Assembly (NCBI GenBank): GCA_019358985.1
Contig: JAHHIJ010000006.1
Coordinates: forward strand, 156,355-220,354
Direction: 5' to 3'
From: Tolypothrix brevis GSE-NOS-MK-07-07A
Lineage (GTDB): Bacteria; Cyanobacteriota; Cyanobacteriia; Cyanobacteriales; Nostocaceae
Length of the DNA stretch: 64,000 nucleotides
In this document: positions 285 through 6,519 of the stretch, in pieces
Position numbering within the stretch: the stretch's first letter is position 1
Layout of the letters: every line of letters begins with the position of its first letter
Program-made: the position numbers and the translations under genes
Notes under the pieces: model-generated
What the model was told of the DNA's origin: nothing
What the model saw: the letters and a program-made list of their open reading frames with translations, nothing else
Database searches by the model: none

Positions 285-522
285 AGGACTTACGCAATCC
301 GATGTCGTAAGTAGCGGTAATTCATGAATTACCGCGACTGTATAACGCTCTTTTATTACTCTTGTCAGAGTAAATTTGAAACCCTATTTTCCCTTAGTCC
401 GCGTAGGCGGACTTTGTTCGTTTAGCCGCGACTTCCAGTCGTCAGGGCTTCATTAAATTATTCTTTCTCCAGAGTCATAGAAGAGGGATAATAGGCTTTT
501 CAATTATTTTTGCGTAAGTCCT
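285..522. mobile_element. 238-bp MITE with perfect 13-bp terminal inverted repeats
   Basis: The left end AGGACTTACGCAA (285-297) and right end TTGCGTAAGTCCT (510-522) are perfect inverted repeats. The interior has no plausible ORF and contains a GTCCGCGTAGGCGGAC palindrome near 398-414. The size, inverted ends and lack of a transposase fit a non-autonomous element. No clear target-site duplication is visible. It abuts the broken VOC gene. The parent transposon family cannot be assigned without a search. Confidence 0.7.
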
Positions 523-569: not shown

Positions 570-1613
570 CTAGAATCCGAAGAAACTCTTCGCGACACCC
601 AGCCAACTAGATAATTGCATCAGGATGGGTTTGACATTCTCCCAAATGCTCTTAGTTGATGTCACAGTGTCGCCTGCGTTTTTCAATGTTTCCGCCATAC
701 GTTTGAGATTTCCAGCTGCAAACTGTTTATCAGGTTGTGTTGTCTGAACTTCTTCTTTAACTGTTTCCAAATATCGGAGTGACTTTTCTTTCATTCCTTG
801 TGGCAGTTCTTCTGTTGCTTGAAGCAATTGCTCAACCTGCGCTAGCATCTGAATCACTTCTTCTTGGGTTAGCTGTTTTTCATCAGACGCTACGACTTTA
901 GTTTGCATTGTTTGTTGGTTATAGTCGCCCTGCGCCGCCTGCATCCCACCAAACACTTGACCACCGCTAACACTTTGGGAAATTCCACCAAAGGTTTTAG
1001 GCTGTGAGTTTTTCTCTTCTTTTGCTTGTGTTTCTACAGGTAAGGAAAAAGCTTGAAACGGATTTACTTTAATTACTGGGGTTAGATGTTCTGGAATCCC
1101 ATCCAGTGCAATGGCATTACAACCCAATTTGTAGGCTTCTCCATAGGATTTACCAGCACCCAATGCATCATAAAACCCTTTCGCAAAATTTATCGCTGCC
1201 CTATCTCCTATCGCTTGGTTCATGCCCACCACATAATTAATATGTTGGTAAATTGCCTCCGCTTGTGTTTCGGAATAGCAAGCGTTTAAAAACACACATT
1301 CAATCTTTGTTTTGAACAGTTCAAATAACCCTCCTAAAGATTCTGTACTCACCAGTTGCATTTGCCCAGAGTTATTTTCTAGGGCTAAACCGTGACTTCC
1401 TTCCCCATGCCCAGAAAAGTGTACAATCGTCGGCTGGTAATCTAAAAGGGCGCGGCGTAAGTCGTCCACCCGTACAGCCCATTCGGTGAAAAGTTCAAAC
1501 TCATCTCGGCTTTTGGCTCGTTTCAGTGCAGCTTTAATTTCCCGCACTTCCTCATCCAGACGCAGCTTGTCTGTGTTCTTGGGATTGGCTGACAAAATTA
1601 AGATTTTTTTCAT
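570..1613 (-). CDS. CHAT-domain (caspase-like) protease with C-terminal helical domain
   Basis: Probable cysteine protease of the CHAT clan, a caspase relative used by bacteria as a regulated death or processing effector. The N-terminal half (numbering from the upstream TTG codon at 1637) has the His motif HFSGHGEG (His77) and the Cys motif VFLNACYS (Cys120), the expected dyad. A low-complexity linker with GGMQAAQGDYNQQT (about 230-243) leads to roughly 110 helical residues ending in a hydrophobic tail, probably an adaptor or association domain. I chose the ATG at 1613 (MKKILIL) because AAGGA lies 11 bases upstream; the longer form would start at TTG. It is the last gene of a same-strand group led by a STAND NTPase whose N-terminus carries a similar GMQAA motif. 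The substrate is unknown. Confidence 0.8.
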   Translation of the reverse strand: MKKILILSANPKNTDKLRLDEEVREIKAALKRAKSRDEFELFTEWAVRVDDLRRALLDYQPTIVHFSGHGEGSHGLALENNSGQMQLVSTESLGGLFELFKTKIECVFLNACYSETQAEAIYQHINYVVGMNQAIGDRAAINFAKGFYDALGAGKSYGEAYKLGCNAIALDGIPEHLTPVIKVNPFQAFSLPVETQAKEEKNSQPKTFGGISQSVSGGQVFGGMQAAQGDYNQQTMQTKVVASDEKQLTQEEVIQMLAQVEQLLQATEELPQGMKEKSLRYLETVKEEVQTTQPDKQFAAGNLKRMAETLKNAGDTVTSTKSIWENVKPILMQLSSWLGVAKSFFGF

Positions 1614-1729
1614 AATATTATTTGTCCTTAAATGCAATTTTTTGGAGCAATCCTAAATCATTCTGTAGGGCGGGCATTGCCCACCCTACTTAGTACACAA
1701 CTGAACTGTATTGCTGTATAAACTAGAAT

Positions 1730-2665
1730 TTATTTTGGAAAGTCAACTAATTGAATGAAGCCAGAAGAGGATTTAAATTGATATCTTTTACCTGGTTGCA
1801 ATGATTGGGGTGGAGTTTTTGGCTTGCAACCAACTGGACAAGTTGAATTAAACTGAATGCTTAAAGATCCAGCAGTGTATCTTTTTTCTTCTCCAGGGCG
1901 TAATGTATATATATTACCATTCAGTACGTACACCACATCACCAAACATCTGATTAGAAATGATTGTCGTGATTTCAGGGTTATTTGGTTCAACAATTGAG
2001 CGAAGAATTTTGTTGTTTGGACAAGTGTATTCAGTTTTGTTTCGGATATCAGCGCACACATTGAGATCAACAGCCGAGTTGAAACAAACAGAATTTTTAG
2101 TTACGGTAGCATCTCTGCGTCTAACATCAAGTTCTTTATCAATTACAGCTATGAATGAGCCGGAATCTATCACTGTCTTATTTTCTTTAATCTCGTACTG
2201 AAATTCATTTTCACTCTCCATAACAATGAAATTACTACCACGATGGCTTGTCCCAAAAATAATTTGGGTGCTTTCAGAAGATTTTCCCTTTTGGTATTCT
2301 CTGTCTGTGTATGGGTATGGATTGCTTTCCAAACCTCTAGTGACATTTTTAACAATTACACGTCTTTTAGGTGCTGGAGGAGTTTTACTGGAGGTAAACC
2401 AAGCTTTGATTGAGCGTGAGTCCTTTCCTGGACACTCACCTTCGTACTCAATTTCTTGAATAGAGCCTTTGTTTAACTCTTGACTTCCTTCAAACTCCCA
2501 CCCTATATCAGCAGAAGATTGCGGTTGTTGAGTCAATTGTGCTGTTGAAGATGCTAGAAAAAATGTCACAACTAGAGTGCAGCTAAAAGCTATGAGCAAC
2601 AAAAATCTAGTAGTTGGTAAGATGAAATGACGTAGTTTGTTCCAGAATCGATTGAACTTTTTCAT
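1730..2665 (-). CDS. Membrane-anchored exported protein of unknown function
   Basis: A 311-residue protein with a basic N-terminus and one hydrophobic segment (about residues 17-43), followed by a polar, Ser/Thr-rich extracytoplasmic region. The segment could be a signal peptide or an anchor. The C-terminal half is rich in short beta-type stretches (DVVYVLNGNIYTLRPGEE) and has several cysteines in pairs (TCPVGC, YTCPNN), suggesting disulfides outside the cytoplasm. No family is recognised. It lies 92 bp upstream of the CHAT reading frame and 147 bp downstream of the FecR-like protein, all on the same strand, so it probably belongs to that transcription unit as a sensing or surface component. 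This role is inferred from position only. Confidence 0.6.
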   Translation of the reverse strand: MKKFNRFWNKLRHFILPTTRFLLLIAFSCTLVVTFFLASSTAQLTQQPQSSADIGWEFEGSQELNKGSIQEIEYEGECPGKDSRSIKAWFTSSKTPPAPKRRVIVKNVTRGLESNPYPYTDREYQKGKSSESTQIIFGTSHRGSNFIVMESENEFQYEIKENKTVIDSGSFIAVIDKELDVRRRDATVTKNSVCFNSAVDLNVCADIRNKTEYTCPNNKILRSIVEPNNPEITTIISNQMFGDVVYVLNGNIYTLRPGEEKRYTAGSLSIQFNSTCPVGCKPKTPPQSLQPGKRYQFKSSSGFIQLVDFPK

Positions 2666-2812
2666 AGGAAAATGTGACTTGGATTGAATAATTTACGTTG
2701 TAGTAATAATGCACCCTAAAAGTTGGCAGTTTTCAGACTACTGGGAGAAAAAGCATTGACTACTAAGCCTCTACTAAAGAACTTAGAAGTGAGCTAAGAA
2801 ATAGCTATCGTA

Positions 2813-4057
2813 TTATGGTATGGGTGGTATAGTTGGCTGTGTAGTTGGTTGTGTAGTTGGACGTGTAGTCGGGCGTGTAGTTGGGCGTGTAGTCGGGCGT
2901 GTAGTTGGCTGTGTAGTTGGGCGTGTAGTCGGGCGTGTAGTTGGACGTGTAGTCGGGCGTGTAGTTGGCTGTGTAGTTGGACGTGTAGTCGGGCGTGTAG
3001 TTGGCTGTGTAGTCGGACGTGTAGTAGGGCGTGTAGTAGGACGTGTAGTAGGACGTGTAGTAGGTTCAGGAACGCTTGGAATAGGAGTACCAGACTCAGG
3101 TGGGCGTGATTTCTGACTTTCCACAGCTTTTTGGAAATCTTGAATGTCAGAACGGATATTTTCAGACCAGTTATTAGAGTCTAAAAAGATTTGCACAGGT
3201 CTTGAGTCGTAGACCTCTTTTGGTATGGTGGTTGTATCCCCTCTCCTACCATCACCAGCATCGGCGTATCTGATACCTGCTCTGACTGTTGTTGTACCGA
3301 TGGTGACGGAACCAGTAAGTACATCAACCACGGTCTTATCGGCATCCTGATGAATGTAAATCAAGGTCAAATTTCCTCGGGGTACAACAGTGAGTTGATC
3401 CGCATCGGCTTGAGCAATCAAGGTATCTTTAGAATCTTTACCTTGTTTTGATTTCTGAGCTATGTTGGCGTTGCTGATGCTAGCTCGCTGTCTGCTCTTC
3501 ATTACAACTATACGGTCACATTCTTTTACACTCTTCTTACGGTTGTGAACCCCCCACAACCCGCCACCACTATGTTGGCAGGGGAAAATGTATTGGCTGT
3601 CGTTCGTATCAGGACCAACTTGCACTAGAGGATTAAGAAGCGAGCTTCCTACTTTAAATTGAAGGTGAACCCAGTGTTCATCTCCACCACTGGTACGTGG
3701 AACCTCAATAATATTTTGGGTTTCTAATTCATCCGCAGGACGAATTTTAGTTGATTGACCTGTTGTTGTGAACCGCCTGCTGATAAATCCCTTCAGAAAG
3801 TCTACTCTTGCACTTGTTGGTTTTCCCGACTTTTCACTAATAATATTTTGGGTTTCTAATTTCTCCTGCGGATGAATTTTAGTTGATTGACCTGTTGTTA
3901 TGAGCCGCCTGCTGATAAATCCCTTCAAAAAGTCTACTCTTGCACTTGTTGATTCTCCCGACTTTTCGCTTTTGCTGCTTTGGATAGAAAATATGAGAAA
4001 AAATAGAGGAATTAAGATGCCTATTGAAGCTAATAGAAAACGGTATCTAGTTTTCAT
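2813..4057 (-). CDS. Membrane-anchored FecR-like protein with PTTR/PTTQ repeat tail
   Basis: A 414-residue protein. Residues about 7-26 form one membrane or signal segment. A unit of about 44 residues, ARVDFLKGFISRR...TGQSTKI...LETQNII, follows twice in tandem. The central region (about 130-330) resembles FecR-type sensory domains: a CDRIVVMKSRQRA-like strand, then LTVVPRGNLTLIYIHQ and VDVLTGSVTIGTTTVRAG. The C-terminus is about 80 residues of PTTRPTTRPTTQ, a probable wall-spanning or glycosylated stalk. The gene starts 14 bp after the STAND gene stop, indicating co-transcription. The FecR match is by pattern only; FecR domains sense envelope signals in other systems. Confidence 0.6.
   Translation of the reverse strand: MKTRYRFLLASIGILIPLFFLIFSIQSSKSEKSGESTSARVDFLKGFISRRLITTGQSTKIHPQEKLETQNIISEKSGKPTSARVDFLKGFISRRFTTTGQSTKIRPADELETQNIIEVPRTSGGDEHWVHLQFKVGSSLLNPLVQVGPDTNDSQYIFPCQHSGGGLWGVHNRKKSVKECDRIVVMKSRQRASISNANIAQKSKQGKDSKDTLIAQADADQLTVVPRGNLTLIYIHQDADKTVVDVLTGSVTIGTTTVRAGIRYADAGDGRRGDTTTIPKEVYDSRPVQIFLDSNNWSENIRSDIQDFQKAVESQKSRPPESGTPIPSVPEPTTRPTTRPTTRPTTRPTTQPTTRPTTRPTTQPTTRPTTRPTTRPTTRPTTQPTTRPTTRPTTRPTTRPTTQPTTQPTIPPIP
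2820..3065. repeat. 12-bp tandem repeat encoding PTTR/PTTQ
   Basis: About 20 copies of a 12-bp unit (plus-strand consensus GTAGTTGGNCGT) run without a frame break inside the C-terminus of the minus-strand gene. Each unit encodes Pro-Thr-Thr-Arg or Pro-Thr-Thr-Gln on the minus strand. Copy number is likely to vary by slippage. Long plus-strand frames here (Val-Val-Gly-Arg) are by-products. Confidence 0.9.
3721..3972. repeat. Tandem duplication of about 132 bp inside the FecR-like gene
   Basis: The sequence starting TTTCTAATTC at 3721 recurs at 3853 with few mismatches and runs to about 3972. The period of 132 bp equals 44 codons, so the duplication keeps frame and gives two near-identical juxtamembrane segments. 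The high identity suggests a recent event. Confidence 0.8.
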
Positions 4058-4071
4058 AGGTTTTGCAGTTG

Positions 4072-6519
4072 CTATTGTAAGTTGCTCATAGATACAATTT
4101 TTTGGTTTGAAGTTTCCGGAGAGGGTACTTTACAATACTTAAATCGCTCAACAACAAATTCTGCGGGAAAATCAAAAATTGACTTTGTGAGTGTACTGGC
4201 ATTAATGTCAAGTACATTACAATCAGTGTCTTCATATTCAGATTCAGAACCATACCAACCGCAGCGTTGTTCCGTAGCTTCACGCCACAATCTTTCAATC
4301 TCTTTCAAAATTTCACAGGGAAGTTGGTTAGCTTCCTGTTTATCCTGGATAAAACCATCATTATTAAGGTCTGCTCCGGCTCCATCACCTCTCATCAAGA
4401 TATTATATGTTGTTCGTAATGCACCTTCTGTATACTGATTTTCAAAATCTATTTTTTCAGTATTACCTAAAACTTTTCCAATATTAGGATTGGGTTTTTT
4501 AAGATATTTATGAAGTTGAGGTATTCGGTATTTCAAAATTAGTTTTGCAAGAGAAGCTTCAGCTTCTTGCAAAATACCGTCGATTTTTTGCGAGACTTGT
4601 GGAAGTTTCTCACCATTTTTTAGAGAGGTTGAAAACTGTTGAGGATGTTTTTTGATTTGCTGTTGCAGCCTACCTGCCGCTCTCAAAATCTGGCGGTAAT
4701 AAGCAAATGACTTATCAATGTCACTTTGATGATTCTGGTAGTATACGATCGCTTGCTCAATATCAGCTGTGTTTCCAAGATGGTCTACTTGATTTTTGTA
4801 GTCACGAGCTTGCTGTAAAAGCCTGGGCAAAGCATTGAGAATTTCTGTTGTATCTGTATCTAAAAAAACAGCCTCAACAGTTTTTTGTGCTTGCTGTTGT
4901 TGTATTGCAAACAGTAGGGTAGAAATAGCGATAATTGCAGGGAAGGCGATCGCAACTGCAATTCTCCGTCTTTGCACGCGATCGCGCAATCCAACACTAG
5001 CATCAATAAATTGATTCGCAGCAGGACTAAACCCACCCAACACTTGATTAAACGTGGAGTCCTTTCGCATCTCTAAAACCTGCTCCAACTTGGAACCAGC
5101 CCACAGTTCATCCTCTGCTTTCCTTGCTTGCCAGTGTGCTACATCCTCATTGAGTCTGTTACGTAGGGCGATGCTGTTACGATTTTCCCTAATCCAGATA
5201 TTTAAGCTAGTCCAAGAAGTCAGCAATGTTTCATGAGTAATTTCCACTGTAGATTCTTGAGATGTTAGCTGGCGGTTGCTAACCAATAAATTCTCATTAA
5301 TCAAGTTCACCAACACTGTGCGCTCAAGTTCATTGGTAAACTCAGACATTGATGCTCTTCTGCGAACTGGCTTCCATTCAGTACCAGATTCAGAATTCTT
5401 GCCTATGTCAACCAGTTTCAGAAAGATTTTCTGAGTAGCTAACTTTTCCGGTTCTGGTAACGCCCCATAAATGCTATCCACTCGTTGTTGCAGCGCACCC
5501 CTGACACCACCTAGCTGGCGGTAGGTACTAATATTTAACGTGCGGTCTTGAATACTCCCATTTTTGACTTCTGTTTTCCAGAGTAAATCCAACGTGTACT
5601 GTAATAATGGTAGATAGCCTGCCTGTCCTTGAATATCCTTGATAATTTCCTCTACCAGTCCAGTTTCAAACACTACACCATGATGCGCCGCAGGTTGTTC
5701 AATTGCTAACCGCAACTCATCGGATGGTTGCATTTCTGCAATCAACGGACGATGTTTATCCGTAGCTTTTACTAGCTGGGGATAGGGGCTTAATCTATCA
5801 AGAAAATCAGCCCGCATTGTCGCCATAATTTTGACAGAACGATTCTTGGTGTTATTCAATTTCACCAAGCTGGCGATAAACTGGTCGCGCTTTTGGGGCT
5901 GACTGGTGGTGAATAACTCCTCAAACTGGTCAATTAAGATGAACCAATAATCATCAGGCTGCTTTAACCTTGTTACTACCTGAGTAAGGGTGTCAGCTTT
6001 AGCTTCACGGACAATTTCGGCATCCGCTTGATTGTATTTACTAGACAATGCAGTATAAAAAGATTCAAATGGATCGCGGTCTGGTTTAAGTATCAACTTA
6101 ACTAACTGTGACCCCTCTTTTTGTAGCAGCCAAGGAATTAACCCTGCACGCACAACTGATGATTTACCACTACCACTAGCTCCTAATAGCAAAATCAGAT
6201 TGGTCTGTTCTAATTCATTGACCAAACCTGTGAGAAATTGGTCACGCCCAAAAAATAGGTCTTTGTCTTCTAGCTCGAATTTCTTTAAACCTTTGTAGGG
6301 TGAGGTCTGTAGAAATTGACGAGTTTTAATCTCCGCAACAGATATTTGTAGAATCTCTGTCTTATTAAATGTGACAACGTTGCTGTCACCCTGAATCTGG
6401 ATATTACCATCACCGATCGCTGCTTGCATTCCATCCATTGCCGAGTTATCAGCCTGCTGCGAAATACTAGGCTGATATGAGGATGATGGATTCTCTTCTG
6501 GGTTCAAAGGCTGATTCAT
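4072..6519 (-). CDS. STAND-class NTPase (nSTAND1-like) with transmembrane segment
   Basis: An 815-residue signal-transduction ATPase. A short N-terminal region carries GMQAAIGDGNIQIQGDSN (about 30-47). The NTPase follows: FFGRDQF, Walker A GASGSGKSS (about 113-121) and Walker B WFILIDQFEELF (about 192-203), then the helical/winged-helix region (ETLLTSW). A hydrophobic segment, AVAIAFPAIIAISTLLFAI, lies near residues 520-538. The C-terminal 270 residues are helical with no WD40 or TPR repeats and contain DLNNDGFIQD, an EF-hand-like loop. STAND proteins act as switchable scaffolds in defence and death pathways; here the likely output is the CHAT protease encoded downstream. The start at 6519 has no clear ribosome-binding site. 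Confidence 0.85.
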   Translation of the reverse strand: MNQPLNPEENPSSSYQPSISQQADNSAMDGMQAAIGDGNIQIQGDSNVVTFNKTEILQISVAEIKTRQFLQTSPYKGLKKFELEDKDLFFGRDQFLTGLVNELEQTNLILLLGASGSGKSSVVRAGLIPWLLQKEGSQLVKLILKPDRDPFESFYTALSSKYNQADAEIVREAKADTLTQVVTRLKQPDDYWFILIDQFEELFTTSQPQKRDQFIASLVKLNNTKNRSVKIMATMRADFLDRLSPYPQLVKATDKHRPLIAEMQPSDELRLAIEQPAAHHGVVFETGLVEEIIKDIQGQAGYLPLLQYTLDLLWKTEVKNGSIQDRTLNISTYRQLGGVRGALQQRVDSIYGALPEPEKLATQKIFLKLVDIGKNSESGTEWKPVRRRASMSEFTNELERTVLVNLINENLLVSNRQLTSQESTVEITHETLLTSWTSLNIWIRENRNSIALRNRLNEDVAHWQARKAEDELWAGSKLEQVLEMRKDSTFNQVLGGFSPAANQFIDASVGLRDRVQRRRIAVAIAFPAIIAISTLLFAIQQQQAQKTVEAVFLDTDTTEILNALPRLLQQARDYKNQVDHLGNTADIEQAIVYYQNHQSDIDKSFAYYRQILRAAGRLQQQIKKHPQQFSTSLKNGEKLPQVSQKIDGILQEAEASLAKLILKYRIPQLHKYLKKPNPNIGKVLGNTEKIDFENQYTEGALRTTYNILMRGDGAGADLNNDGFIQDKQEANQLPCEILKEIERLWREATEQRCGWYGSESEYEDTDCNVLDINASTLTKSIFDFPAEFVVERFKYCKVPSPETSNQKIVSMSNLQ

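What the first reader, a model, noticed from the sequence alone, without database searches (positions are those of the whole stretch)
570..6519. Four-gene STAND NTPase-CHAT protease cassette with two exported partners
Seen: four minus-strand genes in order STAND NTPase, FecR-like PTTR-tailed protein, cysteine-containing exported protein, CHAT protease; the first gap is 14 bp. Known: STAND ATPases and CHAT proteases are parts of bacterial immune and death pathways. Inference: the exported proteins sense an envelope or phage signal, the STAND protein (with its own membrane segment) relays it, and the CHAT protease executes. I do not recognise this four-gene combination as described.
Basis: partly seen in the sequence, partly recalled or inferred. 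Interest (0 to 1): 0.75.

Follow-up and report, generated by a model that had tools for sequence, protein, structure and literature searches.

The report
Envelope-facing NLR with motif-matched protease
A cyanobacterium carries a STAND receptor with one predicted membrane-spanning stretch; its tail shares a short motif with a CHAT-domain protein encoded three genes away, and in relatives the same receptor usually sits beside a predicted exported protein whose modelled fold is FecR-like, so the set is predicted to sense trouble at the cell surface and would then likely switch on the CHAT protease inside the cell.

The parts
4072..6519 (-). Receptor gene: short motif tail, nSTAND1 NTPase, one TM-like segment, C-terminal domain (815 aa)
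   Evidence: Pfam PF20703 2e-108
6346..6468 (-). Receptor N-terminal tail (residues 18-58) with the shared motif; core GMQAAIGDGNIQ at 6397-6432
5113..6300 (-). nSTAND1 NTPase domain (residues 74-469)
4906..4962 (-). Predicted transmembrane segment (residues 520-538), 5 K/R on the N side, 1 on the C side
4075..4887 (-). C-terminal domain (residues 545-815), all four cysteines of the protein, all-helical AlphaFold model (pLDDT 89.5), weak GUN4-like similarity; predicted extracytoplasmic
2813..4057 (-). Gene 3: predicted exported FecR-like partner of the receptor, PTTR-repeat tail
3176..3724 (-). Part of gene 3 that superposes on PupR/FecR-type signalling domains (residues 112-294)
2830..3061 (-). 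Twelve-base tandem array coding the Pro-Thr-Thr-Arg/Gln tail of gene 3
1730..2665 (-). Gene 2: predicted exported cysteine-containing protein, probably an optional passenger
570..1637 (-). CHAT effector gene: CHAT domain, shared motif, C-terminal helical part
1134..1598 (-). CHAT peptidase domain (residues 14-168; His77 and Cys120 in this numbering)
912..947 (-). Core of the shared motif in the CHAT protein, GMQAAQGDYNQQ (residues 231-242)
573..884 (-). C-terminal part of the CHAT protein (residues about 252-355), judged helical by eye; 66% identical to a frame without CHAT in G746 (L210/L219)

Best explanation
The cassette most likely encodes a membrane-anchored NLR-type signalling complex in which the receptor's cytoplasmic tail, after a signal predicted to arrive from outside the membrane, would recruit and activate a CHAT protease through a short motif that both proteins share. 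Steps: (1) the FecR-like gene 3 protein, predicted exported and anchored by its N-terminal segment, binds or monitors an envelope or surface cue (inferred); (2) it acts on the receptor's C-terminal domain, which lies after the TM-like segment and carries four conserved cysteines (location predicted, contact inferred); (3) the nSTAND1 NTPase oligomerises on ATP binding (inferred from the STAND class); (4) clustered N-terminal tails template the matching motif of the CHAT protein, probably as a beta-arch/amyloid-like stack (inferred from the shared motif and from the known BASS pairs); (5) CHAT proteins are brought together, become active and cleave a target, possibly killing or disabling the cell, helped or targeted by their C-terminal helical part (inferred). 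Shown here: genes, domains, motif sharing, conserved receptor/gene 3 adjacency, interchangeable effectors. Not shown: any biochemical step.
Against: The window STAND tail scores as high or slightly higher against a CHAT protein of another species (L037_4) than against its own, and in G746 the L222 tail scores its own CHAT third. In the window the motif is internal in the CHAT protein, not at its end. The cognate partner was best in its row in 8 of 11 pairs; the L046 pair is weak (42 of 500 shuffles) and the L210 pair fails (142 of 500). The CHAT gene is separated from the receptor by gene 2, which is not conserved there; a separate CHAT gene lies by the receptor in only 3 of 66 loci. Gene 3 is absent behind the receptor in 9 of the 62 testable loci and 301-900 bp away in 3, and absent in a weak receptor hit left out of the count (L113). 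nSTAND1 proteins with WD40-like repeats have a TM-like segment at the same place (L222, L223), so the segment alone does not prove an outside location. No Pfam FecR match. The gene 3 profile was built from these same neighbourhoods; the window's gene 3 alone finds 34 frames. A 41-aa motif query in the own genome found only the STAND itself.
Confidence: 0.62

Rival explanations
1. The motif works as an ordinary, non-amyloid adaptor (a small homotypic or beta-augmentation contact, like an effector-associated domain) that docks CHAT on the receptor.
For: An effector-associated domain is thought to recruit a protease effector to a STAND protein by homotypic contact (PMC10907252, passages; EADs in PMC8195603, passages); the Gloeothece plasmid copy carries a TRADD-like N domain in the upstream gene. 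Nothing here shows fibre formation.
Against: The shared pieces are about 20-30 residues, Gly/Asn/Gln rich, differ from locus to locus and also flank small helical, partly HetE-N-matching effectors, as described for BASS motifs with Bell domains (PMC7889193, section read).
Confidence: 0.2
2. The system is a housekeeping stress switch: the C-terminal domain is a diverged GUN4 tetrapyrrole-binding domain and the protease adjusts photosynthesis or iron/tetrapyrrole physiology rather than killing.
For: GUN4 profile hits in 21 of 33 family members at E up to 1 (best 4.7e-5), profile-profile 78% probability. FecR-type domains usually serve iron-uptake signalling (recalled).
Against: The receptor hits to GUN4 whose bits were shown (5, the window's) are below the curated cut-off, while 7 other GUN4 places of the genome are above it; the FGFSVQ residues of those GUN4 segments are replaced; effectors swap among caspase, TIR, trypsin, CHAT and Bell-like, which suits death or defence better.
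Confidence: 0.12
3. The four genes are neighbours by chance and CHAT and STAND are unrelated members of large cyanobacterial families.
For: The genome has 17 matches to the CHAT protein (some fragments) and 14 to the STAND (several per gene); gene 2 is not conserved in the setting; a separate CHAT gene lies near the receptor in only 3 of 66 loci.
Against: Shared motif specific to the pair within the genome, same arrangement in L037, fusions of CHAT to the same kind of receptor.
Confidence: 0.06

Closest known systems
NLR-associated amyloid signalling pairs of filamentous bacteria (BASS motifs; Dyrka et al. 2020, known here only through the review PMC7889193, section 9 read, and passages of PMC9815663 and PMC8086366)
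   Same: NLR-type gene near an effector gene; a short motif shared by the NLR N-terminus and the effector; effectors Bell, and less often CHAT or TIR
   Different: Here the receptor has a TM-like segment, a conserved four-cysteine C-terminal domain and a conserved, predicted exported FecR-like partner; the motif is internal in the CHAT protein; membership in BASS1-10 could not be tested
STAND/effector-associated-domain conflict systems of multicellular bacteria (PMC7159879, PMC8195603, passages)
   Same: NTPase hub with exchangeable protease, TIR and other effectors; GUN4 named as a cyanobacterial associate
   Different: FecR does not occur in the main text of PMC7159879; coupling here is by a short motif, not a folded EAD
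DGR-diversified STAND sensors of Thiohalocapsa (PMC10907252, passages)
   Same: nSTAND1/NACHT proteins with peptidase partners, one sensor predicted periplasmic
   Different: Sensor there is a hypermutated C-type lectin domain; here a conserved helical domain plus FecR-like protein
FecR/PupR cell-surface signalling regulators
   Different: No cytoplasmic anti-sigma domain; the neighbour is a STAND receptor

Membership tests
NLR-associated amyloid (BASS-type) signalling pair | NLR-type STAND gene clustered with an effector gene | tested here: met
   in the window the CHAT gene is three genes downstream, not adjacent
NLR-associated amyloid (BASS-type) signalling pair | Short motif shared by NLR N-terminus and effector, locus-specific | tested here: met
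NLR-associated amyloid (BASS-type) signalling pair | Motif at the C-terminus of the effector | tested here: not met
   residues 231-242 of 355 in the window CHAT; it is at or near the end in the small partners L042, L044, L053, L090 and in the CHAT proteins L111 and L156
NLR-associated amyloid (BASS-type) signalling pair | Motif belongs to one of the ten described BASS families | not testable with these tools
   the BASS profiles are not held
NLR-associated amyloid (BASS-type) signalling pair | Motif forms amyloid / prion-like assemblies | not testable with these tools
   needs bench work
CHAT peptidase (PF12770) | Profile match above cut-off and His/Cys pair | tested here: met
   47.5 bits vs 24; His77 in HFSGHG, Cys120 in NACYS; that they are catalytic is recalled
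nSTAND1 NTPase (PF20703) | Profile match above cut-off over the full domain | tested here: met
   363.9 bits, positions 1-377 of 379
FecR-type anti-sigma regulator (gene 3) | Periplasmic FecR/PupR signalling fold | tested here: met
FecR-type anti-sigma regulator (gene 3) | Cytoplasmic N-terminal anti-sigma domain | tested here: not met
   hydrophobic segment at residues 7-25, only 6 residues before it; that FecR has such a domain is recalled
GUN4 (PF05419), receptor C-terminal domain | Profile match above cut-off | tested here: inconclusive
   window 14.6 bits vs 29.2; 21 of 33 members hit at E up to 1; hhalign 78% and 61% probability
Known anti-phage systems in PADLOC-DB | Match of the set to a defined system | tested here: inconclusive
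   CHAT-type models (chat 8.6e-22, SAVED_CHAT 6.4e-8) and PDC-M14B for the CHAT tail (8.5e-8) hit; no model for gene 2; only weak hits for gene 3 (0.0088) and STAND (9.6e-5)

The most novel reading that the evidence does not exclude
This is a transmembrane inflammasome: a bacterial NLR that is triggered from outside the membrane by an exported FecR-like co-receptor, and that passes the signal inward by prion-like templating of a protease. The receptor ectodomain is a GUN4-derived, disulfide-bonded domain, and both ends of the machine (exported sensor tail and cytoplasmic executioner) are swapped freely between cyanobacteria while the receptor and the FecR-like core stay constant.
Probability: 0.35. 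Interest if true: 0.85.

Novelty: new variant of a known kind. Interest (0 to 1): 0.62.

Why it matters
The biological role of the microbial NLR/amyloid-motif cascades is called a major blind spot (PMC7889193, passage). Here a conserved, predicted exported partner and a receptor domain on the predicted outer face of the membrane give a place to look: the trigger would be an envelope or surface cue. The set offers a compact test in a cyanobacterium or E. coli of whether an outside signal can drive motif-templated protease activation, and a family of natural swaps (caspase, TIR, trypsin, CHAT, Bell-like) to compare.

Tried and rejected

Rows left out. L113, a weak receptor hit without gene 3, was left out of the 66. 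Hits not fetched or not used: G087, G107, G171, G273, G054, G504:C50, G685:C178 and G685:C429. 4 of 66 loci had under 600 bp downstream. Genome tallies are lower bounds, since only the first candidates (up to 7 or 12) of each genome were scored. Motif pairs: 17 scored; L045, L200, L202, L203 and L204 (close kin of scored ones) were not; L155 has no same-strand gene in front; L150, L154 and L198 have no such tail in the frame read. The original BASS paper was not available.

Full report
Observation. Pfam confirms nSTAND1 (2e-108) and CHAT (2.1e-12); genes 2 and 3 have no Pfam domain above cut-off. The STAND protein has one strongly hydrophobic segment at 520-538, and all four of its cysteines (735, 753, 767, 796) lie behind it; genes 2 and 3 start with a hydrophobic segment. 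The window is G000:C50:156355-220354 of a 6.5-Mb genome.

The missed link. The STAND protein starts with a short tail that contains GMQAAIGDGNIQ; the CHAT protein contains GMQAAQGDYNQQ between its CHAT domain and its C-terminal part. Among 16 CHAT-matching frames of the same genome the neighbour scores best against the STAND tail (48, next 35). A second CHAT/STAND pair of this genome, on contig C60, shares a different motif (NQAIG..), and there too the neighbour ranks first (66, next 33). In genome G746 of the same family two more adjacent CHAT/STAND pairs carry the window's motif, with WD40-like repeats (by eye) behind the NTPase; there the L223 tail scores its own CHAT first and the L222 tail its own third, behind two CHAT proteins of the same motif type.

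A family of receptors. The part of the STAND behind the TM-like segment defines a cyanobacterial family: 54 proteins (the window's own included) in the protein search, with caspase, trypsin or TIR domains or only short tails in front. Genome searches found it in 29 of 388 genomes of the order (E up to 1e-6), 24 of 388 of the class (E up to 1e-10; the two draws overlap) and 17 of 217 of the family (E up to 1e-10); these are lower bounds. 20 named loci came from GTDB contigs. A copy with CHAT fused to the receptor lies on plasmid pP742402 of Gloeothece citriformis PCC 7424, typed as conjugative.

Conserved neighbour. Of 66 receptor loci (window included), 62 have at least 600 bp behind the receptor; a gene 3-like frame starts within 300 bp in 50 of them and within 900 bp in 53. 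After clustering the receptors at 85% identity, 45 of 53 clusters have it in at least one testable member, 44 in all. None was found in L098, L103, L107, L109, L196 and L206-L209. The profile was iterated on the same neighbourhoods (63 hits among 598 frames of 200 aa or more); the window's gene 3 alone finds 34 frames, itself included. Of 65 gene 3-like frames of any length, 54 have an N-terminal hydrophobic segment, against 127 of 535 other frames. Gene 3 homologues have variable C-terminal ends: CAP domains in 3 of 10 and Ig-like domains in 1 of 10 scanned; in the window it is a PTTR array.

Topology. A TM-like window (mean hydropathy above 1.4) precedes the C-terminal domain in 62 of 62 receptors of at least 600 aa, with more Lys/Arg on the N side in 60; cysteine is about twice as frequent behind it (1.64 against 0.75 per 100 residues). 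With the predicted exported neighbour this points to an N-in, C-out receptor. The two nSTAND1 proteins with WD40-like repeats have a similar segment (by eye), so this is an inference.

Effector exchange. By cluster (56): caspase 13, TIR 4, CHAT 1, trypsin 1, frames of 870 aa or less 24, longer frames without label 10, no NTPase in the frame 3. The 24 include broken frames and frames that start inside the NTPase (such as L035 and L040), so they are not all true short-tail receptors. Of the longer ones scanned with Pfam, CHAT was found in L039, L089 and L095 and not in L093; the same call confirmed CHAT in L048 and in the plasmid copy L224. Receptors with short tails often have a separate effector beside them: small proteins (HetE-N above the cut-off in 2 of 4 scanned, L042 and L053; just below it in L104; none in L044), 172-aa proteins (no Pfam match above cut-off in 2 scanned), or CHAT. 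A separate CHAT gene lies by the receptor in 3 of 66 loci (window, L037, L156).

Motif statistics. For 17 tail/effector pairs (chosen for a short tail and an adjacent candidate; the C60 pair has no such C-terminal domain) at most 5 of 500 shuffles reach the cognate score in 15; L046 (42 of 500) and L210 (142 of 500) fail. In 11 pairs taken as independent the cognate total is 762 against a permuted mean of 352 and a maximum of 707 in 100000 permutations; the cognate is best in its row in 8 of 11. Two of the 17 partners (L144_4, L100_5) are themselves large proteins with the motif at the N-terminus; L100, in the set of 11, contributes the highest single score (192). Without it: 570 against 315, 0 of 100000 (10 pairs); also without C60: 504 against 278, 0 of 100000 (9 pairs); also without L108: 459 against 250, 2 of 100000 (8 pairs, 7 best in row).

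Gene 2. Forty-six proteins, the window's own included, match. In the order search 56 of 388 genomes match, many with a shorter, about 220-aa form. Of 8 near-full-length homologue stretches fetched (up to about 10 kb on either side), none holds the receptor, gene 3 or CHAT; nor do the 3 shorter or fused ones. It is beside the receptor only in the window and in L037. Two more protein pairs share a longest-contig length with a receptor protein; they could not be placed.

What is known. A review describes bacterial NLR/effector gene pairs with shared BASS motifs, mostly with Bell domains and less often with CHAT or TIR, in filamentous bacteria (PMC7889193, section 9 read). So a CHAT/NLR pair with a shared motif is a known kind. 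A search for papers holding both FecR and STAND NTPase found none among 5.39 million open-licence papers; a search for nSTAND1, periplasmic and cyanobacteria found one, on DGR-diversified sensors, which predicts one periplasmic STAND-associated sensor (passages). Searches (listings) gave no description of the receptor/FecR-like pair that I recognised; the library lacks most subscription journals.

Verdict. The likely functional core is receptor plus FecR-like partner, with a motif-coupled CHAT executioner; gene 2 looks optional. Mechanism steps beyond sequence are inferred.

Noticed in passing
window 285-522: MITE-like repeat with 13-nt perfect terminal inverted repeats, 47 bp behind the CHAT stop; 44 matches (itself included), mostly partial, in the genome.
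   Followed up: partly
window 3707-3967: Gene 3 holds a 132-bp two-copy tandem duplication (92% match) besides its PTTR array.
   Followed up: no
window 2820-3116 (+): Two plus-strand ORFs opposite the PTTR array are most likely by-products of the 12-bp repeat.
   Followed up: no
L111 (G000:C60:8696-28695): Second CHAT/STAND pair of the same genome with a different shared motif at the very end of the CHAT protein.
   Followed up: yes
L210 9837-10277 (-): A 147-aa frame close to the window CHAT's C-terminal part (66% identity over residues 252-355), without CHAT or motif, in front of a receptor that keeps the GGMQAVIGDNN motif.
   Followed up: partly
L050 3237-6919, L051 6964-10654: Okeania: a trypsin-TIR protein in front of a TIR-fused receptor, i.e. 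TIR in both partners.
   Followed up: no
L224 4238-10207: Gloeothece plasmid pP742402: DUF1822/TRADD-like N protein, CHAT-nSTAND1 receptor and overlapping gene 3 on a plasmid typed as conjugative.
   Followed up: partly
L100 5909-10729, L144 4887-9237: Each locus has a second large protein in front of the receptor with the same N-terminal motif, as if one recruits the other.
   Followed up: no
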